DNA of 64,000 nucleotides from Asterochloris sp. CNOR1 (Eukaryota; Chlorophyta; Trebouxiophyceae; Trebouxiales; Trebouxiaceae). Under the pieces are notes generated by a model. That model saw only the letters and a program-made list of their open reading frames with translations, ran no database searches and had not been told where the DNA came from. Below, in pieces: positions 1 to 55,598 of the stretch. Location: positions 1,922,001 to 1,986,000 of the forward strand of contig OZ017759.1 in assembly GCA_963969365.1 (NCBI GenBank), read 5' to 3'. The first letter of the stretch is position 1, and each line of letters opens with the position of its first letter. Position numbers and translations under genes: made by a program.

Positions 1-1164
1 CCAGCACGGCCCAGTCAGCGCTCTGGGCAGCAGTGGTGATCAGGTGCCACCGCAGGCAGCGCAGCCGGCGCTGCCCTCGCTGCTCCAGCAGACCACCATG
101 GCCATGGGGCAGGCAGCGGCAGGCCTGTCTGCAGGTCCCCCAGGTGCGCTTGCTCTGCTACCGTGCCTGGTGCACATTCCCACTGCAAGGACCTTGCATC
201 AATGCAGTATGCATGTTGCAAGGCAGCGGGTGGAACTGTCGTGAAGCAGGGAAAGCGCCTCAACAGACTGTCACTGGGTGCCAGGTCACTCTGCTTGGCT
301 CGGGCTGTCTCCCACCAGTGGTAGCTCAGCAGCAGAGCATGTGACACCCTGGATGCTTTGCTGGGAAGCGTGTGCTCGACCATGGACCTCTCTTGCTCAG
401 GAGCATGGTGCTCCTGGTAGCTTGGATGCGCTCCAGAGGCTCTCCAGGCAGGCTTCCAGTTCCCAGCATGCCTACAGGGGGTTCAGGCGCCAGCCCAGGG
501 CTCGGAGTCCTTGATGGCACTGCTGTGCGGCATGGCCAGGCTTCAGTGCTGCACCCTGCGTGCAGGGCTTGCAGTGACCTGCACACACCTGTCACCTGGG
601 GCAGGCAGGGCTCTCGGCCTGCTCCCTCACCAGAGGGAACACGCGGCACCCGGTGCCTGTGTGCAATCCTGTGGGCCACAAAAGCAAGGCCACTCTCTGC
701 AGATGTGCCTGCCTCCAGGGAGGGGTAGCAGCTGGCTGGCAGGCTGAGCCCCTGTCGTAAGTGGCAGAGGTGCAGGCCTCCATGCCACCTTGGGCAGGGC
801 CTGGCCAGGGGCCCAGAGCGCTGCTGTCTGCAGCAGCTCTGCTAGGGAACCTTCCTGATGGAAGAACCCTACCTTGCCCACAGGGACAATGCAGCACCAG
901 CGTGTGAGGCAGGGGTGTCAGGTTCACAGCACCTTCAGCATTGCTGGTCAGTGGTACCTGCGGGAGCCTAGGCTGCCGGGGGCGGCACAGCGTCACATGC
1001 CCGCAGGTGGCAGCGAGGGTGGCGAGTGCCTCTCTCTCTGGCACAGCTGCTTGCTGCTCACGTGGGGCAGCAGCCTCCCACCTTGCCTGCAGGTCCCCCA
1101 TTGCAAGCAGCAGGCCACTTGGTGCTCAGCTGTCAGACAAAGTCACGTGTCGCCTGGCCTGCAG
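1..1164. other. Unresolved upstream sequence of the first gene
   Basis: No exon could be placed here with confidence. Open frames exist on both strands, but they are rich in Trp, Cys, His and Arg, as expected of GC-rich noncoding sequence, and none joins in phase to the first clear exon at 1165. That exon begins with two bases of a split codon, so at least one exon lies upstream, either here or left of the window. A degraded copy of that exon's 5' edge lies at about 471-506, which suggests that much of this stretch is intron. Confidence 0.5.
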
Positions 1165-7500: not shown

Positions 7501-10500
7501 CCGTTGGGTTGCTGCCTATGCAGCAAACAGTGCTGGGGAGGTTGCACAATGGCCTGATGTGCTGCAGTGCATGTGTGTCTTGCTGAAGTCAATGCGTTAT
7601 GACTATAGCTGTCTAGGACCGCCTCAAGATGCATGGCATGGGGTTGCTGCCTTGGATGGTCAAGTGTTTGAATGCCCTGCTGCCGCACACGGTGCGCCTT
7701 GCAGTGCAGCCCTGCATGCACTGCCAGCCTCCTGGCAGCATCAATGTCAGAGGTCACACAGGCACTTCTAGCTGCATGGTCCTGCGGCTCACTCCAGACA
7801 GATGCTGGTGATCAGGTCGGAATGCATCAGATCTGCTGGTTGGGCAGCCAGCACCCACAGCGTGCACCATATATGCACCATATATTATGGGCAGGTTGTG
7901 CTGCGTGCAGGGCCGTTGCTAGAGGCCCCAGTGCCCTATGATCATCTTGCCAGTGATGCACCTGCAGCTGTAGAGGTCCTTTTCTTACTGTGGGGCTGCC
8001 CCCTGCTGCAGGGCTGTGGAGGGCCTGCTCCAGGAGGGCATTGACGCTCAGGCGGTGCGCTGCGACGTCAGCAGCAAGGAGCAGGTGGGTCCCGGCCATC
8101 TCTGAGCTTTGCCCTGCTGCCGTTGCACAGGCGTAGCTTTGGTGCAGCCCCAGTATGGGAAACACAGATCGCCTCAGCTGCTGTTGCTGACCTCTGAACA
8201 CTCAATCCAAAGAGGCCCCTTGCTGATGCACTGGCACAACACACAGGCCGTCCCGGAAATGTGTGGTGGCACAGCTGCCCCTTGGAGCTCCTGCAGATGG
8301 TCGCTATGGCCGCCTGGACCGAGCAGGCCTGAGAAGCAATGGAGTCTTCCCACCTCTCCGCAAAGACAGTCGCACTCCCTGTGAACTGCAGGTGGATGCC
8401 ATAGCATGATGTTGGAGATGCTGCTGAACCAGGCCAAACTTGCTGGGGTTGGCCGTCCACCTCTGTCCTGCAGATGGATGACGTTTGGAGCAAGTGCAGG
8501 CCTCGGGAAGCAGAACCTGCCAATACCATACAACCCCGTCATGTCATGCGCAGGTGGATGCCATGGTGGCATGGACAGTGCAGGCCTACGGCGGCGTTGA
8601 CATACTGGTGGCCAATGCCGGCATTGTCAAGGGGGCCGAGTTCATGGAGATGGAGGAGGCTGACTTTGATGAGGTGCTGCGCGTCAATCTCAAGGGAGTG
8701 TTCCTGGTGAGCACTGGGCTTGCACTATCACTTGGCAGGACTATCACTTGATTGGTGTGCATTCATTGCAATGGCTGCAGCCTGCCTGGGCGTGGTGTCT
8801 GGGTCAGGCTCCTGTGTGCTAGGGTGTGCATTCATTGCAATGGCTGCAGCCTGCCTGGGCGTGGTGTCTGGGCCAGGCTCCTGTGAGCTAGGGTGTTGGC
8901 CCTGCATCACCTCGGTCACAGCTCTGCAGGCATGCATTCAGCAGTCACCTGGTGCACAGGGTTGATTGTGGCTAGGTGTGGCTGGGGACTTGCTTTTGGC
9001 CCTTGCATGTCAGGCGCTCTGCTTGCTGCCTGGAAGCAGGAAGCTGGGGGGAAAAATGGTGCTGTATGTCAAGTTGGAGGGATCATATCTGGTGGGTCTT
9101 CCCGTCTGCATGAGCTGGTTGGGGGTGCTGCTTGGAAGGTGGGCACCGCTGGCGACTGCCGCACGCCTGAGGCATGCATTCATCTGGGGAGAGCGCCAGA
9201 CCTTATTGAGGACGACAGTCTATGTGGGGCTGGGCTGGTCCCAGTTGCAGGTGCCTATCAGCACGTACATTGCCCAAGGCTTCAGGCATAGGAGCTGCAA
9301 CAGCGACAGACCCTGGCAGATGTCGAGGTGGCTGCATTGCTGCTCATCAGGCAGCATGTCAGGCAGGCATCAGCCAGCATTGCCTCTTAGCTGAGGCAGG
9401 TCTACAGCCGATCACAATCCTAGGCTACAAGAGCTGCAGATCCTTACTTTGCCCCCAGTCTTCTGCCCTGCAAGGAGGCTTGACAGGCGACACCAAAAGA
9501 GTGAACCCTTGACAGGGGGAGGTTCGACAGGAGCAGATGCAGACGTGAGAAATTGCAGAGAGAGAGAGACGTAGAGCTCAGAGGGCCCTGCAGTGTTGCC
9601 CTGCAGTGGCAGCAGGCCACAATGTGCTGAATGGGCCGGTCACAGGTCCAGATGCAGCCATGATAGCCGCAGAGCTCACACTGCCCTTGATGTTATGCTC
9701 TGCAGTGTGGCCAGGCTGCAGCCCGCCAGATGGCGCGCCAGAACGAGGAGCAGCCTGGGCGTGGGGGCTGCATCATCAACATGTCCAGCGTTAATGCAGT
9801 AATGGCTATCCCCACAGTAGCTGGCTACTGCGCCAGCAAGGGGGGCGTCAACAACCTCACCAGGTCAGCTGGGCTGCAGTGCCCTGTCAGGCTACAGGGA
9901 CTATATTGGTCTGCTTGCTGGCAAGCATCCTGTGCAGCGAGCTCGCTAAGTGTGCAGAACAGTCGTATTCTGTGCCGAGCAGTGGCTGCATGACGCGCCA
10001 GCTGCCTGGGGCCTGTGCAGAGCACCAGCTGATTTCGGCCTTGCGCTGTTTGAGGCCAATGCATGGCAGCCTGGCACACTGCTGGCATCTGCCAGCTTTG
10101 ACTGTCAAAGGGAGTCCCTGGCAGAGTGATTGCCCTTGCTGTGAGAGGCCGTCAAAGGTTGCTGTGTGACCTGCAGGTGCATGGCGCTGGCGCTGGCGCG
10201 GCACAACATCAAGGTCAATGCGATTGGCCCTGGCAGCATCATGACTGATGTGCTGCAGGCGGTTGCAGCAGACAAGGCTGCCATGGACAGGTCCGTCACA
10301 GCTGGCCCTTCTGACAGCCTGCCTGCATGTGCTACCCCACTGTTCCTCAGTGCAGCAAGTCTGTTGCTTGTTGACGCATGGTGACATTGTTACTGTGTTC
10401 TGGCCTGCATAGCTGCCTTTGTACAGACGAGCCATGGTGGCCCTTGCAGTGCCACCTGGTCTGCCCTGCACAACACAGCTGCTGGCAGGCCTTGTTTTCT

Positions 10501-15844: not shown

Positions 15845-18800
15845 TCAGGAGGCGCCAGGCGGCTTGGCGCCTGAGGCCTGGGTGATGAGCCACGAGGCTG
15901 CGTATGTCTTGGCTGCATCTGAGAAGTGGGACCTTATGAGGCTTTCATCCCCTGTGCGGATGGCCTTCAGCCAGTCCTCAAATTGCCGGTCATACATGTC
16001 CTTGCTGAGGTCCAGCTCAAACTGCAGGGGAGGGGTTCAGAGGCCTTAACCGGAGGCCTCCACCAGCGCAGAGGGGGCGTGAAAGGACGGTCCCAAGTGG
16101 ACTGTCTGCACGTGCTGAACTGATTACAGCAAGTAGCACTGCAGCAAGCTTGCCAGGACTCATCTGCTGGTAAGGTTACTGGTGGGGCAGCCACGTGTTC
16201 AGCCCAGGGTGGCAGCTTGCAACATGCAGCTGTGTGCATATGCCTCAAACCCACCCGACTGGCTTGGCTGCAGAATGTACAGCTTCCAAAGCGACAGCAT
16301 GCACCTACCAGCTTGGTTGGACCACCGCTGGCAACACTGCAAGTAGCACCGTATCAGACAGCCTGCAGCAGATGTGTCCCTGGCAGCTGACCTGCTGGTA
16401 CTTGTCCTGGCCAGGCAGCCGCACTCTCAAGCCAGGGTTCTGGTAGGGGTCTGTGACAATGGCATGGAAGCCATCAGCAAAGACGTCCAGCTCTGAAAAG
16501 AAGTCGGAGCCGTGCAGCAGCAGTGTGTGGCTGAGGGAGCCCACAGCCCCTGACTCAAATTTGAAAATGGCCACTGTCGCACGGTTGTTGCGGTTCTCAA
16601 AGGGCACCTGCAGGGCAGGCTGGACTGTGATGCTTGGAAGACCCGTTGCTTGCATGTGTGGCGGCAGCACATTGACTGAAAGGGCCCAGCCAGCAACATG
16701 GGCAAGTGTCCTCCAGTATCGACAAACAAAAGAGCAATGGACAAGTTCAGCAAGCCTCATATGGCCTGCTGCATAGCAAGCGTTATAGCCTCGGGGATTT
16801 TCTGCTGTGGCCCAGCAGAGATGTGCTAGCCCTGAGGATACCAAGGCAGCAATGTAAAACGATACCAGCTGCAATGCTACTTAAGGAACAGGTAGCCTCT
16901 TGTCAGTGTCTGGCAGTCACTGCAGGACGGCCCCCAGTGCAGCAGCCCAGTCCTCACTGTCTGCTCCCCGTGCTCCGGCATGTCGCTCAGCTGCATGTCT
17001 GGGCCCACACCCAGGGACTGAATGGAGTCTTGGATCAATGTCGAGCCTGACAGGTATCTGCACAACAGCAGAGACACCCTCATGATTTGCTTACTGCTTG
17101 GCAACTTTGGCTGCTGAGAGCAGGGCAGAGTCCACAAAGAGCTGCCAACATAGCCCTGTCAAGCGAGGCTTGCTCAAAGCGAGCACGCTGTAAATTGATG
17201 TGACAGAAAGCATCATGGACTTGGGACGCTGTCACATGCAGACTGCACAGCGGCAGGCTGCATGGTGAAGTGGCTACACAACAGCCAGCCCGCTCAGCAG
17301 AGCACAAAGGCCCGGCTATCTGAACACCGACCGACACCACAGCGCCTGCCTGAACCAGGACGCGTCACAAAGGGGAATGGCCTGTTCCACAATGGCTGGC
17401 AAGTGCAGAGATGCACAGGCAGCCTGCACATCAGCATGGCTGCAGAAGGGCTACCCCGCCGCAGAAGGGCTTGCCCGCGTGGAAAGACGGAGGGCGCCTG
17501 CGATGACCAACAGCATGGCTTCCTGTCTGCACCTGAACATGTCTACAAAGTGGGTAGCCTGCTCCACTATGGGCCCGCCCGACCGCTGCGCATCCCACCA
17601 TGCGGGTTTCTGGATGTTGTTGTAGGGACAGCTGTACCTGCCAATGATGGCGGTGGGCTGGACCTTGTACTGCAGCAGGCACAGGCACAATCAGAGTCAG
17701 GCTGCTCAGCATGTTGGAAGCGCTGCAGGCAGGAGCAGAGCTCAGTCAGGAGTCATGCTGGTGAACAGGGTTCTGGACGCAGCAGGCACAGGCAGGCCGC
17801 AGTCAACACTGAGCGGCTGCTGCAACAATGCCAGGCAGCAGCATCATGCTACAGCTGCTCCTCATGGTGAAGCAGGCAAGCGGCGGCAAGCTGCATTGAT
17901 ATTGCATGAACTGATGCTGCTCATGGCAGCAGGAAACTTTCACGTCTGGCCCACCTGTTTGAGCAGCTCCCTGAGCTTGTCAAAAGCTGCGTTGAAGCGC
18001 AGCATGTAGCCAACAGCCACAATGACTTTGTTCTGCGCCGCCACCCGCTTGAGCTCCTGCAGGCAGCATGCAGCAGCCTCCAGTACCCACTGTTTACACT
18101 GTGAACCAGTGCAGAGGTCTCTACACTTTCTATATCTGACTCAGCGCTTGATGCACTCCACAGCAATCCCACCATGCGCACAACCTAATACTGAAATCTG
18201 CACTTTGCAACAGACTAGCCTCAAGAGTTGTATGGACTGGCAGTGCCTAGCCATGGAGGGGCCGCCAAGTCCGGCAATCGTTGAAGTCCTGGAACTGTAC
18301 TCATTCGACAGGGTCATGACCTTGCCAGCCCCAATTAGAGTGCCAGACACCAAGAGGGTTGGTTGCTCACCCCCGCAAGCCTCACCTTTTGTGCTGTTGT
18401 CATTGTGTAGGGCTGTTGACTTTTGCTCAGTAAAAGAGACACCTGGGGTGCCTCCTCACCTCTGCAAGCCTCTCCACCTCCTCTGCTGTTGTCATGGTGA
18501 TGGGCTTCTCCACCAGCATGTGCACGCCAGCATGCGCAAAGTCTAGCTCAAGCGTCTTCTCAGGATCGTCAATGCGCCCTGCATGTCAATCCAAACTTGA
18601 TGGGTGAAGCTTGCAAGCTTGAGGCTTGCTCATCTGTCTGGAATCACCCGAGTGCTCTGCAGGCAGTGCAAGGCTGCTCATGTGCCCAGCTTGGGGGATC
18701 AAATTGCCTGGTGGAAGAGCTTTATGACCAGCCCGTCACAATCGGTGTGGTCCAGCTCAGGGGCCTGCTTCAAATGATGGATGCGCCCTGCAGGTGAGGG

Positions 18801-20518
18801 CGGTGCCGACACTGCAGGTGTGGACAGCGCCAACACTACTGCTGGCTGCTGCATTGCAGGCTCAGGAGGCATCTTTCACTGGTCAAATGCTGTAGGCTCT
18901 GCTGTCTGCCCAGTGGATGGCACACACACTGCAAATTGAGGCAGCCAGCTGAACAGCAGCAGCAATGCAGAGGACTGCATTGGCTACCAACCATGCAGAT
19001 GGCCCTGAAGGCCCGAACATACTACATCTGGCTTGTGCGTGGCCACCAGAGCTGGCACCTCAACACTGGAAGCATGCCAAGTACCCGCAGGGTTGGGTTA
19101 GCAGGTGAATTGCCCCAGATCCAACTGAACAGACGTGGCTGGAGGCTGGACTTGACACTGCAGCCCGATGAATAGCAGCCAGTACATTGCAGAGGCCATC
19201 TGGCAGAGTGGACTGACCATGCATACGGGTCTGAACACCCATCACCATTGTGTTAGGATTACGATAATTCAGCAGCACTGGTGCCTCAATGCATGAGCAT
19301 GCCAAAGTGGCCATCGGCGGCTATTATCAGGCAGGCATGCAGGCTACCAGCAAGCAGGTATGGGCTGCATGTGCCTGAGGAGTCACAGTATAAGACAGGC
19401 CACCACTGTGGAGGCAGTCTAGCAGGGGACTGACCGTGCAGGTGGGGCGGAATGCCCACCACCGCCGCATCTGGCTTGTGCTTGGCCAGGAGGTCCTTGT
19501 TGTTGCTGAGCACCTTGCAGTTGCGCCACTTGGCAGCAAACTTGCCATCCAGCCGCTCCCTTAAGCGTTTCTGCAAGTGAGGAACCAACGGAAACCGGTT
19601 CAGCAATGATTTCACTGCAGGGCAGCGCCAGTCAGGTGAGCGGTAGAAGGATGGCCTGGACTGTCAGAGTTGCTGACAGGGCTGCCCCCAGGCTGCCACA
19701 GGCCATGCTGCTGCAGGTGGAGGCAGGACATGCTGATCCTGGGCATCTCAGCCTGCCTCAGGGACAGCGTAGGTACTGTGCATGTGCACCCTGTGCATGA
19801 AGGCTCCGGCAATGTGCCAGAAGCATGGTGCCCACACCAAGAACCCTCACCTCTGCCAGCTCCGTGTTGGGGTCCACAATGGCGCTGAACTCCACTCCCT
19901 CCAGCTTTTGTATACGGTCAGCATGGTTCCATGGCCCTTGAGAGCAGTAAATGCACACATGCTTGCTGTGCATATGGACTGAGCACGGGTACGGGTACAT
20001 GAAGCTGTTGAGGCTGCCGGGCATGGCAGGCAGCGTCCCGACAGCGCCAGCTGTGCCAAGCCTCAGTATGGTGCTGATGCCCATCGTGCAGATAACACCA
20101 CAGCTGCTCAGACGGCATGTTTGCAGCTGCAATCTTGCAAATACAGTCTAAGCAGGCCTCGGCCTTGCTGTGGCATGCCTCACCTTCCAATGAACCAAAG
20201 TTGATGCCTCCTGAAACAGCAAAGGAAGTAATTTTGTGGTGGCCGCAAAGTATTGGCTTTGTCAGGTGCTGCAGCATGCTGCACAGCATGCTCAGCAGTC
20301 AGGCGTACCGCAGCCATCACTAGCGCAAAAACCCAATCTATTGCCTACTGCAAAGCTTACATCAGGCCCGTACCTGCTCCAATAAGAGCTATTTTGGTAT
20401 CAGAACCAGAAGTTGCTAAGCGTCTGGCTCCATTTGCTGCTGGACTGGCAGCAGCATAAGCAGCATCTACAAGCTGATGCCGTGCTTCAAACAGACTGGC
20501 TGCCAGGCGCCTCTGCAT
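15845..20518 (-). CDS. Gfo/Idh/MocA-family NAD(P)-dependent oxidoreductase
   Basis: 414 residues, ten exons that join perfectly in phase: 20518-20374, 20210-20184, 19936-19851, 19570-19435, 18578-18460, 18056-17955, 17669-17533, 17057-16958, 16607-16392, 16021-15845. The Rossmann start KIALIGAGG is followed by VEFSAIVDPN, PDAAVVGIPP and the family's catalytic-lysine motif (MLVEKPITM). The C-terminal substrate domain includes VAVGYMLRFN, GGPIVEQATHFVDMF and FELDVFADG. A typical member oxidises or reduces a sugar, inositol or related alcohol; the substrate cannot be read from sequence. The second exon is only 27 nt and carries part of the dinucleotide loop. The ATG at 20518 follows an in-frame stop, which fixes it as the first Met in the exon. 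No clear targeting peptide. Introns contain decayed exon-edge copies. Confidence 0.93.
18367..18412 (-). repeat. Decayed copy of an oxidoreductase exon 3' edge
   Basis: The donor end of exon 18578-18460 (plus-strand text ctcacctctgcaagcctc...ctgctgttgtcatggtg) is echoed at 18367-18412 (ctcacccccgcaagcctcacc...gtgctgttgtcattgtg). The copy lies just downstream in the intron and is out of use. Confidence 0.6.
18990..19262 (-). repeat. Two decayed copies of an oxidoreductase exon 3' edge
   Basis: The donor end of exon 19570-19435, read on the plus strand as gaccgtgcaggtgg...catctggcttgtgc, recurs at about 18990-19060 (accatgcagatgg...catctggcttgtgc) and 19203-19262 (gaccatgcatacgg...cacccatcaccat). 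Spacing is about 220 bp. Both lie in the intron downstream of the exon; neither keeps an open frame with the splice site. Confidence 0.65.
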
Positions 20519-38700: not shown

Positions 38701-41700
38701 CTGCTTCCCTGCGTTCGGCTTGTTTGCGGTCAGCTGTAATGGAGGCCTGAACAGTTGCTCCCTGCAGCCTCTGCATGCTGGTAATGAGCCCAGTCCACGT
38801 TCTTGGTGTTTTGCTCAGATTGCTCAAAACCAAACTTGAAAGGATCTGGTGGTCGAGGTGCCCCAGCAGTGCCCCTCAGGGTTGCCTCTTGCCCTGCAGG
38901 CCTGTGCATCCTGGCATTCGACCCAGTCTTCAGGTTCTTTGGAGCCCATCTGGAGATGCCAGAGGTTATTTTCACCACCATGGGAGGCCTGAGGGGGGCT
39001 GTCTCCCTGATCCTCGCCCAGGCTGCGGTGGCTGAAGACAAGGATGCAGGCGTGAAGGCGCAGCGCATCACCGCACAGGTGAGCTCCCAACCTCTGAACA
39101 ATAAAAATATTTCATGGACGACAGGTAATCAGAGTGGCACGCGTCTGTGAGGCCGCCTTACGTGTGGGGCTAGGAGTCGGGGGGCGGGTCCCGCATGCTC
39201 CTTAGAGGTTGTGGTCTGAACATGAAATTACCTTCACGCCCCTGGGACCAGTCTGAGTTGAGGCCGACTGCCAGGTCGCAGCGTCTTGAGTCCAGAACCT
39301 CAGCCTTGAAGTGGCTGTCTCCCTGCAGGCTCTGCACTGCTTCAGTGTGTGTGCAGCCTGCCTTCTGTTAAACTCAGTCAATCAGGGCTTGCTTGTCCCC
39401 CTGTAGTAGATACTGTTCAGGTCCAGCCACTGCGGCTCCCAGGCCAGCAGCCGCGACTATGCATAGGGCTGTGTAAGTGCTCACACCTGATCTGCTGCGT
39501 ATGCCCATCATCTTGCGAACTGCTGGCATAGTTGCAGCTGAGCACACACGCATCTCTGCACAGGCCCCACATTTGGGCGCGCACTTGGGTGTACAGGCTG
39601 CTGCAAGCCACAATTTGGATTGCACCTGGGTGCAGACGCTGCTCGTCTGCCTCACCAAGGCTTTGCAGTAGAGACATGCCCTGCACAGAGCCACCCCACC
39701 CTACCCTGTGCTGCAGATCACGCTGTGGACCGCCGGCATTGTGGTGCTGACCCTGTTGGTCAACGCTCCTCTGATGCCAGTGCTCCTGAAGTGGACCGGC
39801 CTGGCGAAGGTGTCCCCTGTGAAGCGGCGCATCCGTGCCAAAGCTGCGCGTGCCCTGCAGCGCTATGCAGTCCAAGCTCTGCAGGAGCTGCAGGCAGACC
39901 AGGATGAGATGCTGCGAGGTAGGCCGCTTGATAGGTGCAACTCAGAGGGGATGCATCATGGCCCAGCTTGCACAGCATGCTGGCGGTGCATCTGCGCCAA
40001 AGACTGCACTGTAGCAGTAGGCAGGCCCAGGCTCTGCAGGGCCTGCAGGCAGACGAGGACGAGGTGCTCTGAGGTGAAGCACTTGCTAGATGATCCACCC
40101 ATGCATGGCCTGGAGGGGGGATGGTAGTGGGGGGGGGGGGGGGCGGGAGGGGGGGGGGGCTGCCATTTGCAGCATCCTGTCTGGGTGCGCACTGTGCGCA
40201 GCTGGGCAGGTCAGGCCAAGCTGGCTCAGGTGGGTCTGTTGATATTTGTTCACAAACCTACAGGATAGAGCAGAAAGTTACACAATGTACTTCTGGGGTG
40301 TCATGCAGCTGGGCTGGCCTTATTTTCAAGCTTTGTACAGCATGTCATGGTCTACATAACACTCTGGGACAGCTGGGATTGTGTTGCAGATGTCACTGTT
40401 TGCAAAAGGTTTACATTGTGCTGGCTGTGTGGCCTAAGTGGTGCGCCACTGTTCAAATGCTTGAGATGGACTGCATACATCTGATCAGCAGCATGCTTGA
40501 CACTGGTACATCTGAGCAGCAGTCCGCTCTGAGCAACAATAAGTGATTAGCATGCTTGGGCATCCTGATCTGGGCCTCCTCTTGGGAAAGGGAGGCATCC
40601 TGTGTAGCAGACTCCACTTTAGCTCTATGTCAGTGTGCGTAAAATGCATTTGCTCAGTGCAAAGCTCTGTTGTGCAGGTGTGGACTGGAAAGCTGTGGCT
40701 GATTATGTGGACATCAGCAAAGACCTCGAGATCTTTCTGCCACAGAGCGATGCCGTAGGGTGAGGCATTTGTGGCCTTGTCTGCAGCACTGCAACTTCAA
40801 GAGTGCATGGTGCCTGCTGTCCCCTGGACTGCTGCCAGTTGTCATGTGCTGCTCCTGACACTCTGAAGATTGTGCAAGCAGCATGCAAGATCTCATGGCT
40901 GACTCCTGCCTCTTCCTGGAGCGTGCATGCCTGCATGCAGCATGCATGATCACTGGGGTTTGCATGATGCCATGTGTGGCTTGCTGAGGGGCTCATGGTG
41001 CGCTTGCCGTGGACACTCTCCTCAACTCTGACACGCCAGAAGTCTTGCCAGCCTGTAGGGGTGATGTCACCTTTGGCGCAAGGACGCATCACCTTTTTGC
41101 TGTGTGACCCCCAATCAACCCAACGTGGCACATGTGGGCTGACAGCTGTTTGCCCTGACCTGCTCCCCTCTGGCTGGCCTGCAGGTCCAAAGCTGCCAAG
41201 GAGGACGTGCACCAAGCAGCCAAGACTGTCAAGGAACGCGTGGCAGAAGTTTCAAGCAAAGCTGGCAGTATGCTGCGCTCGGCAACCAGGCGGTGAGTGC
41301 ACTGTCACATGTGGCAGCACAGCAGCCAGGGGAAGCAAAACCTTTCTGTGTTGTCACAAGAGACAATGCACAGGCTGTCACGCTGCTGCAGGGAGGCAGT
41401 CAGGCATGGCATGGTCCTTGGATATCAAGTGGTTGTGCCTTGCCGTACATGCACTCGCACAGCAGAGTACCCAGAGCTTGGTGGCATGTGCCGATGCCTT
41501 TCCTGGACAGGCATATGCCTCAGGGCAGCATGAGCGAGGTCGTTCCCCTCCCTGTCTTGTCAAGAGGAGGGGGAACATCCATTAGTGAGCATGCTGCCCC
41601 TGGTCCTGTCAGCAATAATGTTGGGGCCTCTGCTTCCGCACGGTAACCCCCTCCGTCCCACCCTGCAGGGTTTTAAAGAGCAGCGGTCACAGCCTTTGCC

Positions 41701-44700
41701 TGTTGAAACAATGATGCCATTCCGTGCCGTGCTGCAGGAACCTCGAGGGCGTCAATCAATATAATATATAGTTGCTTCCTTCCCTAGCACTTGCAGGAAA
41801 GTCAAGGGTAATCGCCGTGATGGAGCCTTCCTGTCCCCTTGTCACCAGCGACAGAGGGTCTGATGCCCTCAATCTTGTTTGCAGCAACCTGCAAGAATCT
41901 TAAGGGGCGGAGCCACTGGGCAGCCCTGTTTGCCTGTGCTCACCAGCAACATGGGTAACACCGTTCTGCCTTCCTGGCATGCTGCAGGAACCTCAAGGGC
42001 AAGGTCGTTTAGCCAGTGCTCACCAGCAACCATGAGCCTATGCTTGCAAATAGGTAGATGGAAGGGCAGTGGCTAGGGCGCGGCATCTAGTCATCAGCAG
42101 AATCGAGCCTCTATCACTACACATCTCAATCTTCCTCCCTGGCCAAGTGCAGGAACCTCAAGAGCAAAGGCGAGGAGTCCTTGCCCCTGCTCACCAGCGA
42201 TGTTGAGCACTCGGACGACGGAGCCAATGGGGAGGCGGAGGCGTCCTCAGATGCAGCCAACGCCTCAGCTGAGGGCTTTGTGGAGGTTCCCTCCCTCAGT
42301 GATGTAGCGACAGGGCGCAATGCGGCTGCCCCCAACACTCGGCACACAGCGTGAGTCGTACTATACCCTGTGGCTGGTCAGTTGGTCGAGGACTCTGTAC
42401 AGGTTCCATCCCTCAGAGGCGTGGCCATGGGGCGCAACAAGGCTGCCTGTAGCAGCCGACACACAGCACAAGTGTGTCTGCTGTCTGAACAGTCAACTAG
42501 CTGTTGAGTTTGCACAGGTTCCTTTCCTCAACAGGTCAAGGCTGCAGGGCGCACAAGGCTTGCCACAGCAGCAGGCACGTAGTGCATCATTCTTTTAGTG
42601 CCTGAGGTTGCAGAGCACACATATCACTGGAGTGCACCGCCTGCCGCAAGTGTTGACCACTTCCGGGTGACGTGGCTGCTTGGCTGTCACATCTTTGACT
42701 GTGAGTCAGCGTTGCATGGCAGACCAGCTTGCAGCGTGACCTGTGCATCCAGCACCAGGCATGAGGCAGTGCTTGTCCTCAGCAGCGGCCGCCACACCCA
42801 CAGAGGACCCACGAACCACCAGGAAGTGAGGTCCTAGCTCAGGTTGCCCACGCTCAGAGTGCAGCTGAACTCCAGCTCTGGGCAGTGGAGCGTGAGCCTG
42901 TGCTGGTTGCCTGTGCCCCTGCATGTAGGGCAAATGCTGAGGCTGCAGCAGACATGTTGACCAGCTCTCCTTCAGCCCACCAGCAGCATGTCCACGTGCT
43001 GTCTGCCTCTGCCTGCAGGGCTGAGTCAGAGGCCGCAGCCGACACCATTGCAGCCTGCCACACCCCGCTGCGCCTCCAAGGCGCCACGAGGCTGGACAGT
43101 GCTGAGGGCGGGGGCAGCGGCAAGGTCCCCCCCCGCAAGGTCGCCAGGCACAGCGATGAGATGCAAAAGATGATGGAGGACCAGCATGGACAGGAGGACA
43201 CCCCCTTCCTGAGCGCTGATGCTGGGCAGGAACCCAAGAAGAGCGCTGCAGATAAGCAGCGCAGCGCTCAGGTGGGCTGAAGTCATTTTTTGAATGCATG
43301 TAATCTGTCAAACAGGAGCTTGACTGGTCTGCAGTCGGTAGACAGCGAAGCTCTCAGATGAGCCAGCGGGGTTGTGTATGCTGATCTGCTTTGTCATTCA
43401 GGACCACTGGTGGGAATGTCACCCTCAAGGTGACTCTGTGCCACTGCTGGCTGCATGCCACCTCAACACATCATGTCAGATACCGTGCTGTTAGCTCCAT
43501 GAGCCGCAGGCTCCACACAAGCTGCAGCCAGCAACTAGCCCCATGGCCGAGTGGCGGACAGCAGGTCAGGTGGGCCGCAGCTGACAAGAGCCTGCTCATG
43601 AGAGCAATACTCTCTGCTATGCTGAGCTCAATGGGGGAGCCTACATTTGGCAGGCGCCTGAGTGGGCTGCAGCAGCCTGGAAGCACCCTTTTGATGTCCC
43701 GCAGAACAGCACGCAGTCTGGGTGCTGCATCCAGAGAGGTGGTGCGTTCATGGCTAGAAGTTCAGCATATAAAAACTCAGCCAGGTCCTTGCCTGACAAG
43801 CAACCCTCACCTGCTGCGCAGGAGGAGCAGGATGCCCCCGTGGGAGCTGATGAGCAGCGCCCCGCAAGCCAGGACAGTGGGTCGACGACTCGACTGGAGG
43901 GCCAAGTCCCATTGGCTCAGGTGAGCAATGCTCAGGCTTGCATGCACAACTGGTACAGTACGTAGGTTCAGGGCTTTTTCTTTTCATGCCTCCACTGTCC
44001 GCACTATGGTTTTTATTTCATTTTTCTAGTAGCACATCTCAGACCCTCAGAACATCAGGTCAGTGCAATGGGCCCCAACATGGCATCACCCTGAGCACTG
44101 CTGTTGCATGCTCCATGCTGCACCTGCACTCGCTGTGTTGTGTGATGCTCCTGCCCGCCTGACATCCTGCGGCGCATGCACAAGCTGAGCACTTAAATGA
44201 GCCTAGCCATGCTGGCTGAGCAGTCGGAGGACCCATGCAGGATGTCGAGCATGCCTTCCTGTGCTGCTGGGTGGCATTCCGATGAGGCTGCTGACCAGCA
44301 GTGGAATCTGTTTGGATGCTACGCTGTAGCACATATGCCCTTTGGTGCAGGCAGGTGCTAGTGACCACATGGAAGGTGGTCTGGGGACTGCTGGCCACTG
44401 TTGCTAGCTGCCCAATGCACCATCTGTCTGTGTGCTGCCGGTGGCTCTCATCTCCTTGTGGGAGGCTGAGCAGCTAGCAAGCCCATCTGCTCCAATCTCA
44501 AGCATGCTCTCACCTGGTGCTGCAGGCGGCCCCACAGGGTTTAGATTGAGCAGCACCCAGAGCCCATGTGCGCAAACACAAAGCAGTCTTGCGCTTGGTG
44601 CTGCAGGTGGGCACAGATGATCGCTTGGGAGGGGGCCTGGAGGCTGTGGACCAGCAGCGCAGGCTATCAGCCGAGACCCAGAGGCTGCCACAACCGCAGG

Positions 44701-47700
44701 GCAAACCCCTGCCATCTGTGCGACTGCGGGGGCTGCGAAGAGCGGACTCCATGGGCCGCGCTTATGACGTGGTGCCGCAGCCCATCCTGGCCCCTCGCAT
44801 GGTCTCGCCAGGGTGAGCAGACGAGAGCCTGGTGGACTGCATTGCACGTTTTGCTACAGTGTGCCTTCTTGAACTGGCGGGTTGTGTGACGCAGATTGCA
44901 CGGCAGGCAATATGGTGAGCAACAGGGTGCCTACCTGTGCAATGCACTTTGGTGGAAGTGGGCACGCTCTCTTGACACAGTCTGCACGGCAGGCAATGCT
45001 GAGAGACCTAGGGATTTGGCATGTGGCCTGACGCAGACCCTGCACCTGCACAGGGTCTTGCCAGGGTGCGCAATGGGAAGCTTTGACGTGCATGGCACCT
45101 TGGTGACTGAGCATGTGGCCTGTAGCCTTGCGCATGACATCTCCAGGGTGAGCACCAAGGAGCCTGTCTGTGCAGGGCACCTCAAGATCTGGGCACGTGG
45201 CCTCACACGCACCCTGCCCCTGCGCCTGATTGCGCCAGGATGAGCAAACGGGCCTCACCTATACGAAATTGCCTTAGTGACTTGGACAAGTTGCGTGACA
45301 TGGACTGCAGGGCAGGCCTTGGGCAGACACAGAGCTTGGCATAGCAGCAATGAGCATGCTGGGCATGACCCGGTGGTGCACTCCCTGCTGTCTGCTTTGG
45401 CTGCAAAGTTGAGATTGGTGCAGCAGTCAGGGCTAACTTGAAAAGTCAGATGTAACCCTGCCAACATACGTTCAGGATCTGCATATGGACTATGCCACCT
45501 TCACACATGTGTTGCGCTGAAAGCTCCTTACTGTCAATGCAGGCAGCATGGGGAAGCTGATTTTAGCACGCCCACCATGAGCTGGCTGCATGTCGACCTG
45601 CCGGCCCTGCAGAAGCACCACAATGATAGCCTTGAGGGCGGCAAGGGCAAGCGCAAGGCCCAAAAGGACCAGGGCAACGACATGAGGTGAGGCTGTTTGA
45701 AGGACTGCTTGGTATACCATAGGCCCGTTCTGCACTCTCAAGTAAGCGCCTGTACTGAGCGGGAGGGGGCAGTCCAGTTCCAGCAGTCCTGCTTTGCGGC
45801 CCAAACGGCATATTCTGCCTGCAGACCAGCTATCTCTGGCCTCTCTTGTGGTTTTCAATGCTCGACAATGTTGCCCTCAATACAAGTGGGCGGCTCTGCC
45901 CTGTGTGTACAGCAGTGGCAGAGCTGTGGCATGCAGCAGAGCGGCAGCTGCAGCAGTCCTCCAATGTGAGCCTCATTCCAGTGATACTCTCCAAAGTGCA
46001 GATAGGGCTGTTGCTGCTGCATACAGCCCCCTGTGCCAGTTCTTGCATCTTGGGCTGCACCTGCCTGAGGGCGACATGGTGCTGAGGCAGCAAAGTGTAC
46101 TGATGACAACGCCCTGACCATGCGGAGGTGACGGAAGCAGGGGCTGGCAGGCACAAACTCGCTCTCAGGGCCACCACTGCCTGCAACAGCCCTGGCCCCC
46201 AGCAAATGCCTTGAGCCTTCCAGAGCACTAATGCCCCCACTCATCGTGCATGCATGAATAGGGCCAGGGCTCTAGCAACAGCAAAACATGGGCAGACTGC
46301 ATGTGTGTAGGGCACCCTTGAGGTGGCCTGCAAATCTAGTCACACAGAGCGCCACTGGCCCCAGATCCCAGGGCTGACGACACATGTCCCCCACCCATGC
46401 AGGAGCAACTGGGCCACGTCGCAGGCAACTCCTGCCGCCAGGGCTGCTGCGATCTGCAGTGCAACCACACCTTCCTCCAAGTCTGCCTGAGCACTGTACA
46501 GAAACTTCATGAACATGCAGGGCACTGGTGGGCACCTTGCAGCACCATGGAAAGTTGCAACCAGCAGCCTTAGTTTACACTGCCACTGCCTCTGGCCCTG
46601 CAGGAGCGACGGGGGCAGGGCATTGGCAGGCACCTCCCATGGCCAGGGCAGCCGCGGCCTCAAACGCAACCTCAGCGGGCCCATCAAGTGGGACGCCATA
46701 GAGGAGGACGAGGACCCCGACGCACAGCCTGTGGACGACCAGGAGATGCAGGGGCTGACAGAGGAAGAGGTACGCAAACAGCACAAGTGGCAGGAGTTGA
46801 GCGAGGCACAACTTGCTGCCTCAACAGCCATTGTTCCCACAGTAAGCAGGACAGATGCCTGCCTGCTGTGCATGCCAGCTGGCTACTTGTCTGCCTGCCC
46901 CTTGCTACAGGTTCTGAGGGCGCCCTCCCTTCGCCCTGTGACCTCGCTTCATCCGTTACACTAACCCTCATGCACAGGTCGTTGGTTTGAATGGTCATCT
47001 CAATGCAGAATATTGTAGAACCTGATCAAGATGCGCCTCCGTCTGCTCAGCTGCCACTGTTGCAGCAGCACGCCGAGGGTTGCTGTCCACTGTGAAGGCA
47101 GACTGACTGCCTCCCTGCCCAACTCATCCTGCAGTCTTTGATTGCAGCCTGGCACCCTTATTCCGCCTGCCGTTCCTGGTGTGACCTCACAATACATGCT
47201 GCTGCAGGTGCTGATCGAGACGCGCATCCGTTTGATCAGTGGCTTGAAGCGCTACTTCCACGACAAGCGCGCTGAGGGGCTGCTGTCTGCCCGCGGCATC
47301 CAGCTGCTGGACCGTGCCTGTGACGCCTCTATGGACAATGATAAGGAGCCCTTGCACATGCTGGAGATGATGTACACGTAAGTACCTTAGCCCAATGTGA
47401 TGTTACAACCTGTGACACCTCTCTGCACATCATCAACAAGCAGGCCCTGCGCATGCATGATTCACCCAAGAGTGCTGCATATGCAGATGCAAGCTGTGCA
47501 TGCACGCGCAGCTTAGGGGCATGCACACCTGTGGCTTCAATGTGCTGCACAGCTGCCGGCAGCCCTGCTCCCTTCACCCTGCGATGCTGGCCGTCGTGTG
47601 GCGGCTGCTGCCTGCCTCTGCGGCATGCCAGCGTTCCTGCATGTCGTTGGCCCACTGACTGCCCCGGACGTGACTGCCATCTCCTGGACGGCGGCATGTG

Positions 47701-50700
47701 CTCTCTGTGAGATGTGTGCAGTGGTTGCTCCAGCAACTGTGCCCTCTGCACTTGGACAAAGCTGCTGCTGCGGCACACTTCTGTCCTGATGGGGGCTCCC
47801 TGATGTGCCCTCAGGGACCTCTGTGGGGGGTGGGCCATCCGCACCCTGGCCCAGATGCTGTTCCTGCTGCGCCGGTACCGCATCGCCCCTAAGCGCGACA
47901 TCTTCAGCAAGGGGCTGTACAGCCTGGTCCGCTGGCCCTCTTTTCTTCTGGCGTCGGTGAGCGCTTGTCCTGCAGAACAGATGCTTGAGCATCCTCGCAG
48001 CGGTCTGATTTCTTTCTATGCGGCCGCTTGAGCAGCTCAGCAGGGGTTTGCTTGCTCTTCTGGTGTCTGTGAGGACTGGTCTGCTGCTTCAGGCCTGCCA
48101 GAGGCATCCGCATGGCCCGCTTTAACCCTCCACATTGCACTGCATCTCAGGCTGAAGGGGACTGCAGCCTTAGACTGGGACTTTGTGCCACTTGTGCGGC
48201 ACGAGTGGCAGTCGGACGTCTGCCACAGCTGCACAGCTTCAGCTGCTGCAGTTGCAGTTGATCTTTTGCACATGTGCAGCTTGACCAGGTGCCAGATGGA
48301 ACGCTGCTGCAATGTAGGGAGGGGCGCATCAGGGACTGCTGCAAGTGAACGCTTCCCATGCTGCAGCCTGATCCTGTGCTGTTCATGTGTACAGCTGCTG
48401 GGGCAGGTGTTGGGAGGCACGATGCTGCTGTCCATTGAGGTGGCAGTAGAGTACTGGCTGGCGCTGACCTGGTGCCCTCAAGCGCAATGGCTCAACGATG
48501 CAGCTCAGAAGGGGCAGCTGCAGGATGAGGTGTGCTCCCTCTGAAGTACTTCAAGTCTCTGATTTGTGCAGGCCATGAGTTCTGGCAGAGTGCTGAGCTT
48601 GCATGTCAGCCCCACATCTGCAGCTTCTCCGCTGCAGGGGGCTGGCACGTGGGTGCATCTGGCCCTGACTGAAGCAGTGATTGGCCGCCCTCAAATGCTG
48701 CCAAGTGCCGACAGCTGGGCATGTCAGCTCAATATATTGCTCATCTGCCATGTCCTTTCCCCTGTGGGCAACTTGCTGAGCTGAGGCGTGCTCTGCCAGC
48801 CTCAAGCAGTGCACTTGACGACATGCGCTCAACAGCTGGCAGCTGGGGTGCACGCTGTGCCATCCCCACAGCATCTGTTGCTGCGACTTTGCAGAATGCG
48901 GCCAAGGAACTTGTGTGGCCTTCAGCCACGCTGCCATGCCAGGCCGCACTACTGTTCAAGCTGCCTTCACATAACATCTGCCAAGTACACCAGCTACTCT
49001 CCACCCTGGTCCCTGCTGCTGGAAGTCAAGTTGCTGCATGCTGCATGTCAAGCTGGCAGCATGTGTCTGGGAACATCCACACTCTCAGCAATCATGCAGA
49101 TCAATGTCTCTGCTTGCAGCCGTCCGTAGCAAGGCCAGCTGGAAGCAAATGGACACAGGGCCTGTGGGTGCCCGAGCAAGTCTCCATGCAGCATGTGAGA
49201 GATTGTCCTGACCCAACATTGTGTGCATGCAGGTGCAGCATGAGAGCAAGAAGGCCTTCAAGTTCATCATTGACAGGGAGGTAGAGGCTCCAGCTCGCTT
49301 CCAGAGCATCCAGGCATACAGGTACCCCAAGCATGCAGCTCTGCCCTGGGCCCTAAGGAAGTGTAGTGTTCTGGTTTTCCTGGGGGATTCTGCCTGTCTG
49401 TGCCCTGCCTTGTGGAGGAGCACCTGCAGATTCCCTCACAGCCTGCTGCAAACATCTCTTTAGGTCGTCAGGGCACTGCAAACTACCAGTCTGTCATCAG
49501 TGGGTGGCTTCAGAGCGGTCCGGCATACAGGTGCACACTGCAGCTGCTGATCCGGGAGCACGCCTCTTGGCCTGACCTCATCCTGCAGAGGGCTTGCTGA
49601 CCCTGGAGGCACCCTGTGTGGACCACCAGCATGTTTAGCAACTGTCCAAGGTGCCAACTGCCACAGATGCGGCCCGTGCCTGCCTGCTGCACCTTTCTTA
49701 GTGACAGCGTCGCGGCCTTTGACAGATGCAGCACTGGTACCTGCAGGGCAGCCATGGCCCTGCTGCGCCAGGAGGCGCGCTTTGTGGACCACCTGTTTGC
49801 CTCAGGGATGGTGGACGAGGCTGAGCACGAGCAGCTGCTGAAGCCCATCGAGAAGCGGGAGCGCAGAATGCAGCGGCAGGGAGCTCTGTGGAGGGTGCCC
49901 CTCATCTCAGAGGTGGGCAATCGAGCAGGGGCTCCGCATCTTGCACCAAGTGTGCGGCGACTGCACAGCACTCCACCTGTTCTGCCAGCTCCCAGCTGCT
50001 GTCACGTGCGGCACAGACAGCATGCAGCGGCAGAAGCGCTGTGGCCGGGGCCCTCATCTCTGAGGGGGGCAAGCAAGCTGTGGGTGGGTCGGTGTGTGTG
50101 ACGGGGGCAGTGGCGGATGCGCAGCACCCCGCTTGCAGTGGGGAGGGCGGGCGATGTGGCAGGGCATGCCCCCCATCCTCAGAGGCAGAGGCATGCGTCT
50201 TCTGGGCCTGCACTGAGTCTGGGTCCTGCTCCTGTCTCAGGTGTGCTGCGAATGCACCGCACCCAACCTGTTCTCTGCCTGTTCTCAGCTGGTTGGCCGC
50301 CTGGTGAGAGCCGTTCCGCCATGCCATGCATGCCAGCTTGTCGAGCTGGGACCCAACTTCTCTGAGTTGAGTGGGCCAAAGGGCTGTCTACAGTTGCTAG
50401 CAAAGCTTGTGAGGCTGGGCTGTGCGCATGCTGTGCAGGTGCTGCGCAACCTGCCCTTCCTGAAGCATGTCCCTGAGGAGGTGTTCAGGGCAGTGCTCCG
50501 CCAGGGGACACTGGTGAAGTACAGCAGGGACGAAACCATCTGGTCCCCTCCACAGCGAGGTAGGCGGGTTGGGCCTGTCTGAGACTTTGACTTACTGGTA
50601 GCTGCCTGATGAGCCTGGGAGGTGTCTTCACTTGGGCTACAGCTGCACTCAAGCTCCTCCACAGGTTCATCGCTCACAAGCTTGCTGCAGGCCAGTCAGG

Positions 50701-53700
50701 TAGCAACGCCACATAATAAACCTGCCTCCTGAAGTGACGTAGCATGGCTGTCTGCAGTGAGGCAGGTGCATTCCCCATCCAGCTCACTGCAGCATCTGTC
50801 TGCAGGCCAATCTGGTAGCGACGGCCTGTATGTCATCATGGCAGGGCTGGTCAAAAGCAGCTTCGTCAGTCCAGATGGGCGCACACAGGTGACTACCTTG
50901 CTTGTAATGTGATCATGCCAGCCAGGCGACAAGGGGTGGCACCACAGCCTTGCATCAGAGCTGCCCAGGGACTTCGCCTCATAACAGTTGCTGGCAAGCA
51001 GCATCCTTCTTACGCCTGGCGGCTGTCATGATGGGCAGACGCTGCTTGCCATGTGCTGGCTGCTTTGCACGCTGCTGACAGCCCTCTGTGTGCTGCTGGC
51101 GCCCCCCTGGGCATGCGTCCTGACAGGCTTGGTGCCGTGTAGGAGTTCTTCCTGGGCAGCGGTGGACTTTTTGGACTCTTGCACGCCCTGGTGGATGAGG
51201 TTGTGCCCGGCAGTGGCCCCTGCTATGCTGTGGGCAACGCGCTCTTACAGGCAAGCCTAACACCCTGTCATCATGTCACATGGGCATGCAAAGCACCTGC
51301 TGCTTCGGGCTGCTACTGGGCTGCGCAAAGCCGCCAGCTTCTCTGGGCAGTTGTCCCTGCTATGCTGTGGGCAATGCGCCTCTGCAAGTGTGCCTTTCAG
51401 TGTCAGTGCGTAAGGAGGCCTGTGCAGTGCTCCTCACCACTGTCTGGCAGTGCACTTGCACTGCTACCTCCAACCAGCTGCTGCTAGTGAGCCAGAGGCC
51501 CAGTGATCGTAAGGCCTGCATGTGTTGGCGATGCTCTTTTGAAGGGTAAAACGATCATTCACGGTCCTACCCTCCCAGCTGGGTGGCATTGTTTGTCCTG
51601 CCACAGGACCTAGGCTTCCAAGATGCGGGAGCCACTGGTGTCCTCCCAGGGGCTGTTCTCTTTTCCTTGACCGATCTATTAGCGGCAGATTGCTGCTGGC
51701 TTGGCTGTCCTGTCTGCTGAGCCTATACAGCCAGAATGACTGGATACTGCTGCTGCAGGGGCCTGTGGTGTTCCACCTGCCCCAGGAGGTTGTCAACACC
51801 ATCAAGCGGGAGGCGCACAGCAATGTCGTCCTGCAGCAGATGCTGCTGGACATGTTCAGGTCAGACAAGAATATCTTTTGTTCTGACTCAGCCATCCCGT
51901 GTGTGTGACGCCAAGTGCCTTGCTGAAGGACGAACTGGGTTTGTCAGCGGGCCAATGCTGCCTGGCGGAGCTTCACTGCCAATCACTCACACAGATGCAT
52001 TGCTCACTTCTCGTCAGCTGCTGCAGGCTGTCTGGGCTGTACGTGCTGGAGCGCCTCAAGTCTGAGGTCATCGCCTGCGCAGTGACACACTACCAGCACT
52101 TGGCTGTGCAGCAGACGCGGACACAGACGCTGCGGCGCCTGGCAGCCCGCGAGAAGCGCCACAACAACGCAGGGCCCTTTGAGGTGGGCTGCACTGAGCT
52201 GCAGTCTCGCCCTGCAAGGCAGTGCCACTGATATCCATCCACCCAAGACAAGCCTGTCATGAAAGGCGGCGCGACAAAGCTTTGTGGATCCAATACTGAC
52301 TGCCTCAAAGCTGCACGCTGGATGCCTGCCTGCCGTCAGGCATGATGGGCGTGCACATGTCAGGCCTGAGGTGGCCAGCACCTGCTTGACCACATGTGCA
52401 AGCATGAGCAGCTCGCCGCCCTTGACAGGCACCACAACAACGCTGGCACTCTTGAGGCGAAGAGATGGTGTCGTCCCTGGCCAGCTCTGTCAAGGCTGAC
52501 CAAGTGGCATCCCAAGGCCAGCTGGTCATGCAGCCTCTGAAGTCTGCTGCAGACCTTGCGGCTGCTGCTGTCCAACAGCCCCAGCGCCGTGGAAGACCAC
52601 ACAGCAGACACCTTTTTCCAGTCCACCCCAAGCACGCTACCATTGTCTCCTGCAGACTGTGTGGGGGTGGCAATATGACAGTCATGGCATGACAGCAGTG
52701 CTGCACACGCTGCATCCATAGCACGACGTAAACAGAGACCCCCTCTGCTGTCTTGGGAGTGCCGCTGAGACAGCATTTGCAGCCTCCCGCCCTTGTTGTG
52801 ACACCATGCGGCTCACCAAGGAACCTCGTTGCCCTTGCTGAGATTGTGTGGGAGCAACTGCAGTAGGCCTCCACACTTTGGGAGCGCCACTGCGACAGCC
52901 CAATCAGGCGCATGCTCATGCTGACTGCACCAGTGTGGCCAGCGCTGAGGCGGCACCCCGCCTGTGCTGCAGACTGTGTGGGAGCGCCACTGCGACAGCC
53001 CCCGCGCACTGGAGATGGTCAGCCAGGAGTTTGGGAGGGCGCTGAATGCGGGCGGGGCCTCCGCTGTGACGGCAGGGCAGGCCTCTGCTGCGCCCAAGGC
53101 CCCCTCCTCCAGCAAGGGTGGGGCCAGGTCGCAAGTGGGGGAGCCCCAGAGCTCTCACCTGTCCAGCGTCAGCCTGGCCTCCCTGCAAAACGTGAGTTGT
53201 CAGGGGACGCCTTGCCGTGCTGGGAGGTTTTCATCATGTAGCTGCATCTGAAGATGGGGCAGGCTTCTGCTGCAGCTAAGTTCCTGTTCAGGGGCTGGGT
53301 GTGGGACACAGGTGCAGGAGCCTTAGGGCTCCTTTCTGTCCACCAGCAGCCTGCAAATTGCAAATCTTCATGAAGGTCTGCACAATAATTTCTACCAGAC
53401 AGTTTCTAACTGGCCTATGGGGGATTGCTGTGAGGGCTGCAGATTGCAACAGCTAATCTGTGGTTGTTATTGCTTGTTGGCAAAGTTGTGAACGTGGGGG
53501 AGGGCCAGGCGGGATGACATCAAGTTGTGAGGCTCCTTGCCGCTTACTGTGCCAGCATTTGGGCTGTCAGTCTGCCCACCTGCACACCTGCCTGCAAGAG
53601 GCTGCAGAGCTGTTCAGGGGCATGGAGGAGCCTTGCGACATGCCGACCCTCCCAGCCATGAGGGCATTGCAGGCCGTTCTCCATGTCATCCTCCGACCCT

Positions 53701-55598: not shown

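What the first reader, a model, noticed from the sequence alone, without database searches (positions are those of the whole stretch)
471..55135. Introns filled with decayed tandem copies of neighbouring exon edges
In at least seven genes on both strands (RRM-like, SDR, Gfo/Idh, RadA, antiporter and others more weakly), intron sequence next to an exon repeats that exon's edge together with its splice site, in units of about 35-220 bp. Upstream introns carry copies of acceptor edges and downstream introns carry copies of donor edges. The coding copy is always the one that fits the in-phase gene model; the others decay, often with identity falling with distance. Known intron-gain models include tandem duplication across an AGGT junction, and introner elements spread introns in some algae. 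This pattern is different: local, exon-derived, repeated in many introns, and not a dispersed family. It suggests an ongoing local duplication process that enlarges introns, may create new ones, and leaves many decoy splice sites. I know of no named description for green algae.
Basis: partly seen in the sequence, partly recalled or inferred. Interest (0 to 1): 0.85.

Follow-up and report, generated by a model that had tools for sequence, protein, structure and literature searches.

The report
Introns hold old exon-edge duplications
In this stretch of DNA from an intron-rich organism, probably a green alga, about one exon edge in six has a worn copy of itself, splice site included, lying in the neighbouring intron; ordinary short tandem duplications that the cell splices out explain most of this.

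Summary
Local direct repeats (20-600 bp apart) are far above chance: 73 pairs at score 38 or more, against 0 inverted and 0 on sampled distant diagonals. With gene models built here (most supported by Pfam), 31 of 197 exon edges match their own flanking intron, against 0 of 174 for the opposite intron, 1 of 110 exon middles and 0.3-0.6% for introns of other genes. Best copies are 69-95% identical; 30 of 31 reach the splice junction.

The special interpretation is only partly supported. Intron interiors carry local repeats as often as edge-spanning tiles (14.4% against 12.1%). A neutral tandem-duplication model with a frozen coding copy comes near the edge excess if most events are old; at steady state it does not. 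I find no intron birth and little sign of current activity. Two misfits remain: copies rarely reach exon middles (0-2 of 110, against 3-15 in 42 simulations), and repeats look rare between genes (1 of 123 tiles). A duplication across an intron-exon boundary is published for one potato gene (PMC4974935); this density was not met in ten searches.

The parts
30796..30971 (-). RadA-like exon whose acceptor edge (30971) is the template of an array in the upstream intron
   Evidence: gene model; Pfam AAA_25, Lon_C, ChlI for the gene
30972..31445 (-). decayed array: 5 copies of the acceptor edge passing z 3.3 (27/34 to 37/43 identical), with further ~50-bp units between them
   Evidence: sequence; TRF period 52 at 30952-31113
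27349..27681 (-). three copies of the RadA acceptor edge at 27271 (47/64, 29/33, 32/34 identical)
26995..27035 (-). copy of RadA donor edge 27097 (36/41); it overlaps a 24-bp predicted exon (27005-27028) that I dropped as too short, so this one could be coding
31540..31586 (-). copy of RadA donor edge 31711 (33/47)
35710..35983 (+). two copies of antiporter donor edge 35614 (51/61 at 35710-35771, 43/56 at 35928-35983)
   Evidence: z 20.1
41775..42007 (+). copies of antiporter acceptor edge 42153 (34/43 at 41965-42007; 46/57 at 41775-41839); the model's 33-bp exon 41738-41770 is probably another decoy copy, not an exon
   Evidence: in-frame stop at that junction in the translation
42430..42478 (+). 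copy of antiporter donor edge 42351 (34/45)
34601..34638 (+). copy of antiporter acceptor edge 34730 (31/38); rest of the 107-bp unit also homologous, z 8.55
37499..37550 (+). copy of antiporter acceptor edge 37700 (39/51)
38760..38804 (+). copy of antiporter acceptor edge 38900 (37/45)
45029..45250 (+). three copies of antiporter donor edge 44813 (34/44, 34/46, 37/50)
46998..47050 (+). copy of antiporter acceptor edge 47208 (37/53)
50027..50083 (+). copy of antiporter donor edge 49913 (46/57)
52820..52901 (+). two copies of antiporter acceptor edge 52973 (30/33 and 33/39); a third probably lies at about 52650-52681
53587..53633 (+). copy of antiporter acceptor edge 53939 (33/47)
   Evidence: z 4.3, 5.3, not listed (under 4)
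18345..18407 (-). copy of Gfo/Idh donor edge 18459 (49/60)
19192..19246 (-). copy of Gfo/Idh donor edge 19434 (40/53)
17334..17395 (-). copy of Gfo/Idh donor edge 17532 (46/61); rest of the 177-bp unit homologous, z 5.54
8293..8330 (+). copy of SDR acceptor edge 8554 (29/38)
57021..57056 (-). copy of cyclopropane-synthase acceptor edge 56610 (30/36)
470..504 (+). copy of gene 0 acceptor edge 1165, about 690 bp upstream
   Evidence: Smith-Waterman score 44; no shuffle z was computed for this pair
8754..8896 (+). young intron-only tandem duplication, unit 69 bp, 97% identical, 5-bp overlap beyond the unit
25886..26031 (.). intron-only tandem array, unit 50 bp, 2.7 copies by TRF

Best explanation
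The introns are repeatedly enlarged by short tandem DNA duplications (unit roughly 50-200 bp) that fall anywhere in a gene. A duplication inside an exon usually damages the protein and is lost. One inside an intron is harmless. One that straddles a splice junction is harmless too, provided that the spliceosome keeps using the copy joined to the body of the exon: the extra acceptor-edge copy then falls in the upstream intron and the extra donor-edge copy in the downstream intron. The exon copy is held by selection while the intron copy drifts, so edge pairs stay recognisable longer than intron-intron pairs and dominate among old, worn repeats. Shown: locality, direct orientation, side rule, tandem contiguity in a third of testable pairs, decay, partly intact decoys. 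Inferred: replication slippage or microhomology repair as the cause; old age of most events; correct splicing in vivo.
For: Direct and local, no inverted or distant partners at score 38. Side rule: 31 of 197 own side against 0 of 174 other side. 30 of 31 copies reach the junction and alignments run on into intron sequence, so the template was genomic DNA, not spliced mRNA. The part of the predicted unit outside the local hit is homologous at z>3 in 7 of 21 testable pairs (10 of 31 not testable), against 1 of 14 for a third-copy control. Local repeats at z>4: 14.4% of 520 deep-intron tiles, 12.1% of 190 edge-spanning tiles. Simulated neutral process with mostly old events, best of three settings: edge 0.127, interior 0.074, ratio 1.82 (sd 0.44, max 2.56), edge-locus fraction at score 34 0.71 (sd 0.12); observed 0.162, 0.069, 2.36 and 32 of 42 = 0.76. 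Copies are not coding: of 30 readings from exon to decoy site, 24 hold a stop and 29 hold a stop or shift the frame (my tally). Splice dinucleotides are intact in 19 of 30 copies with an aligned site, about what 76% identity gives. Of 11 near-complete tandem repeats, 6 overlap their unit by 5-12 bp, 3 by -5 to 1 bp and 2 have more than two copies, which suits microhomology or slippage.
Against: A steady-state version fails: edge-to-interior ratio 0.64-0.84 against 2.35 (with fewer shuffles for simulated than real data), and edge-locus fraction 0.47-0.56 on average at matching unit length, largest of all 144 runs 0.72, against 0.76. An old-skewed version with a low continuing rate and fewer shuffles also stayed below (ratio at most 1.85). 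The fitting settings were chosen after seeing the data, and the best one still gives fewer edge loci (19.8 against 32) and deeper exon reach (median 37 against 27 bp). In all 42 runs exon middles are hit 3-15 times, observed 0-2 of 110. Local repeats are nearly absent between genes: 1 of 123 tiles, block-bootstrap expectation 15.9, P 0.002. Splice-consensus bases beside the AG and GT are better kept in copies than other intron bases (43 of 47 and 44 of 51 against 204 of 270): alignment anchoring or some constraint. Codon-position mismatch is 24, 23 and 28%, a faint third-position excess only.
Confidence: 0.72

Rival explanations
1. The duplication process is aimed at splice junctions or at transcribed, spliced DNA (for example through R-loops, co-transcriptional nicking, or splice-motif microhomology), so exon edges are true hot spots.
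For: Edge loci 32 of 42 and 27 of 35 at the two lower thresholds, above the largest of 144 steady-state runs (0.72); reach into exons of median 27-30 bp and exon middles 0-2 of 110; near absence between genes.
Against: Tile scan shows no edge excess over intron interiors; at high similarity the edge share falls to 13 of 21 and 7 of 13; old-skewed neutral runs reach the observed ratio in two of three settings (maxima 2.56 and 2.79).
Confidence: 0.15
2. Selection shapes the set: deep or strong exon copies compete with the true splice site and are removed, so only shallow, spliceable duplications persist. This can act together with the leading explanation.
For: Exon middles are hit less than in any of 42 simulations; no copies on the wrong side at first test.
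Against: Surviving copies still carry good splice sites: 19 of 30 score 3 or more and 11 of 30 score at least as high as the real site; AG/GT not depleted.
Confidence: 0.4
3. Intron birth by tandem duplication (Rogers model): copies are remnants of exon segments turned into introns.
For: Local exon-derived duplicates exist next to introns; donor and acceptor flanks match at z>4 in 2 of 109 introns, one at z 10.5.
Against: The other-gene rate is 1.2% of 815, and both cases read more simply as edge copies or a false exon. Copies include intron sequence.
Confidence: 0.04
4. The copies are real exons or alternative splice forms missed by the models.
For: Decoy sites score well; the gene finder itself took one copy (41738-41770) as an exon, and the copy of edge 27097 overlaps a dropped 24-bp predicted exon.
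Against: 29 of 30 would frameshift or add a stop if used as an exon extension.
Confidence: 0.04
5. Chance, composition or shared splice consensus.
For: CTGCAG-like words are common around acceptors.
Against: Shuffled introns give on average 0.0 edge loci over 5 shuffles against 27 (score 38); other-gene introns 0.3-0.6%.
Confidence: 0.01

Closest known systems
[quoted passage not shown] seen: parts 1 and 3 of 5 of the text)
   Same: Duplicated unit holds the 3' part of an intron and the 5' part of the next exon; splicing signals are inherited from the parental junction.
   Different: There one event makes a new intron with a donor from exon sequence. Here many events enlarge existing introns and no convincing new intron is seen.
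Rogers tandem-duplication model and its Drosophila cases (Lehmann et al. 2010, PMC2891723; seen: passages)
   Same: Local tandem duplication supplies splice sites.
   Different: That model duplicates an exonic AG/GT proto-splice site; here units straddle existing junctions.
[quoted passage not shown] not held; known from its citation in PMC4974935 and recall)
   Same: Frequent small duplications inside genes.
   Different: Not read here; as cited, it concerns internal duplications including whole introns.
Introner elements of Micromonas and fungi (PMC3879977, PMC4457414; seen only in a search listing)
   Same: Recent intron DNA, in one case in a green alga.
   Different: Dispersed families (recalled); here no repeat is shared between distant introns of the window.

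Membership tests
Local tandem duplication | copies direct and near each other | tested here: met
   73 direct near pairs, 0 inverted, 0 on sampled far diagonals
Local tandem duplication | copies head to tail, homology filling the unit | tested here: inconclusive
   z>3 in 7 of 21 testable pairs, control 1 of 14; 10 of 31 untestable
Local tandem duplication | event seen as presence/absence between relatives | not testable with these tools
   no genome held; one protein query in viral contigs found no relative
Rogers-type intron gain | donor flank homologous to acceptor flank of the same intron | tested here: not met
   2 of 109 introns at z>4, both otherwise explained; 1.2% of 815 controls
Introner elements | similar sequence in many unlinked introns | tested here: not met
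   no self-match farther than 396 bp at E 1e-3 within the window; rest of the genome not available
Tandem exon duplication / alternative exons | copy keeps an open reading frame when joined to its exon | tested here: not met
   stop or frameshift in 29 of 30; transcripts not available

The most novel reading that the evidence does not exclude
In this lineage introns grow by a duplication process tied to splicing or transcription: units straddle splice junctions, reach only a few tens of bases into exons, and are rare between genes, so each intron becomes a decaying archive of its own exon edges and the spliceosome must reject many good decoy sites.
Probability: 0.15. Interest if true: 0.8.

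Novelty: new variant of a known kind. Interest (0 to 1): 0.5.

Why it matters
If general in this genome, it gives a test bed for two open questions: how introns gain length without transposons, and how the true splice site is chosen among similar local decoys. It also warns gene finders: the one built here probably took a decoy copy as an exon. The frozen-exon effect is a useful caution, since it can make neutral duplications look aimed at exon edges.

Tried and rejected
A relative of the cyclopropane synthase in viral contigs: none (no other protein was tried). Long-ORF seeding of a gene finder was dropped because the longest ORFs did not look coding; a first parameter set merged genes and gave 408 exons; the set used gives 9 genes and 140 exons. 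For the edge tests internal exons under 25 bp were treated as intron (122 exons left, from the 113 introns), and exons under 40 bp or targets under 95-120 bp were not used as queries. One search measured the real data wrongly (whole window counted once per gene) and is superseded. Simulations used 25-30 shuffles per test and inflate weak hits; one search uses 60 for simulated and real data. Literature: 10 searches on intron gain, tandem duplication, splice-site duplication, intron expansion and algae listed no description of this pattern at this density; at most the first 12-20 results of each were seen, subscription papers are mostly absent, and two papers sought were not held.

Full report
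What was checked. The window has no held genome, so everything rests on these 64 kb. A scan of all diagonals finds 73 ungapped direct repeat pairs of score 38 or more at 20-600 bp; 0 inverted and 0 mirror pairs in the same range; 0 on 581 sampled diagonals at 5-20 kb; 1.0, 0.0 and 0.2 per 581 diagonals at 601-1200, 1201-2400 and 2401-5000 bp. BLAST of the window against itself gives 21 hits at E 1e-3, none farther apart than 396 bp, 19 direct and 2 inverted. E. coli, 50 kb, gives 0 at the same score and 2 at score 34; it is a bacterial control only. No eukaryotic control genome was available.

Gene models. A self-trained gene finder gave 9 models and 140 exons. Pfam supports seven: short-chain dehydrogenase, GST_C with Gfo/Idh, a methyltransferase, RadA-like ATPase with Lon_C, Na/H exchanger, CMAS, WLM. 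The cupin scores below its cut-off and the first gene matches nothing. The exchanger matches solved NHE7 and OsSOS1 structures (E 3e-41 and 7e-39), and the dehydrogenase aligns with FabG in two stretches. Three models carry an in-frame stop at a junction, so some small exons are wrong. Edges with splice score above 5 in exons of 60 bp or more give 22 of 133 and the rest 9 of 64, so doubtful edges do not drive the result.

Edge test. Each edge (40 exon + 25 intron bases) was aligned to its adjacent intron and scored against 100 dinucleotide shuffles. At z>4: acceptor 16 of 99, donor 15 of 98; same exon ends against the other intron 0 of 87 and 0 of 87; exon middles 1 of 110; mid-intron tiles 10 of 146 one-sided tests; reverse complement 5 of 197; introns of other genes 0.6% of 893 and 0.3% of 889. 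Reruns with fresh shuffles give 31 of 197 edges, 0-1 of 174 other side and 0-2 of 110 exon middles. Printed alignments run through the splice site; 30 of 31 reach it. A 1000-bp cap gives 30 of 197 in five of nine models, 22 of the 30 at 70-85% identity and 4 above 90%. Searching each edge repeatedly (further copies at z 3.3 or more) lists 34 edges, 9 of them with more than one copy, up to five at RadA 30971, where 30972-31445 reads as a worn array.

Nature of the copies. If a copy's splice site were used to extend the exon, 24 of 30 would add a stop and 29 of 30 a stop or frameshift. AG or GT is intact in 19 of 30 copies with an aligned site, about what 76% identity predicts; bases next to them are kept better, 43 of 47 and 44 of 51, than other intron bases, 204 of 270, which may be alignment anchoring or constraint. 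19 of 30 copies score 3 or more with the splice matrix, 11 of 30 at least as high as the real site. For 21 pairs the rest of a tandem unit could be tested: 7 are homologous at z>3, mean z 2.25; a third-copy control gives 1 of 14, mean 0.84; 10 of 31 pairs could not be tested. Since intron sequence is copied together with exon sequence, spliced RNA is an unlikely template (inference).

Is the process aimed at edges? Tiles of 65 bp against 400 bp on each side hit at z>4 in 14.4% of 520 deep-intron tiles, 11.1% of 588 near-edge intron tiles, 12.1% of 190 edge-spanning tiles, 10.9% of 266 other mixed tiles, 7.2% of 223 exon tiles and 1 of 123 intergenic tiles; inverted and random far controls are at or below 1.6%. 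Loci with exon involvement are 32 of 42 at score 34, 27 of 35 at 38, 21 of 28 at 42, 13 of 21 at 46 and 7 of 13 at 54, leaving out 2-4 exon-exon loci at each. A neutral simulation with exons frozen, duplications uniform and introns decaying gives, at steady state, an edge-to-interior ratio of 0.64-0.84 and a mean edge fraction of 0.47-0.56 at matching unit length, largest of 144 runs 0.72, below the data. With activity mostly in the past, three settings of 14 runs give mean ratios 1.82, 1.62 and 1.68 (maxima 2.56, 2.79, 2.34) and edge fractions at score 34 of 0.71, 0.65 and 0.61, against 2.36 and 0.76 observed. So a frozen exon copy produces most of the excess, at the price of assuming old age, and the best setting still has fewer edge loci than the data (19.8 against 32). 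Runs with a low continuing rate and fewer shuffles stayed below. Short-read collapse of young copies could mimic old age (inference).

What does not fit. Exon middles are hit in 0, 1 and 2 of 110 in three runs on the real data, against 3-15 in each of 42 simulations. Intergenic tiles are depleted, P 0.002 by block bootstrap, but this is only about 4 kb in nine pieces. Selection against deep, well-spliced exon copies and constraint on UTRs are simple readings; an aimed process is the bold one.

Intron birth. Flanks of the same intron match at z>4 in 2 of 109, other-gene pairs 1.2% of 815. The case at 41771-42152 (z 10.5) uses a 33-bp exon that is probably itself an edge copy; the one at 52667-52972 looks like an acceptor-edge copy near a weak donor.

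Comparison. A duplication across an intron-exon boundary is documented in one potato gene (PMC4974935, parts 1 and 3 read), exonic proto-splice-site duplication in Drosophila (PMC2891723, passages). The density here, about one edge in six, was not met in ten searches. I call it a new variant of a known kind.

Noticed in passing
3075-4525, 11985-12709, 22677-23302 and six smaller gaps: Local direct repeats are nearly absent between genes: 1 of 123 tiles, 15.9 expected from intron blocks, P 0.002. Small sample.
   Followed up: partly
1221-1362: Recent 66-bp tandem duplication, mostly inside a predicted coding exon (22 residues repeated in the translation, 92% identical at DNA level), an exonic counterpart of the intron events.
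   Followed up: no
41738-41770: Predicted 33-bp exon is probably a decoy copy of the acceptor edge at 42153, showing how such copies can mislead gene finders.
   Followed up: partly
32755-55598: Large SOS1/NHE-like antiporter model with 50 predicted exons; holds 19 of the 30 edge hits at the 1000-bp cap.
   Followed up: partly
39872-40092: Two small predicted exons (39885-39918, 40049-40063) lie in a direct repeat of spacing 155 bp; possibly a duplicated small exon.
   Followed up: no
62867-62941 and 63315-63389: A copy of the end of a WLM-gene exon lies beyond the gene's predicted end (448 bp away), so that gene may continue past 63107.
   Followed up: no
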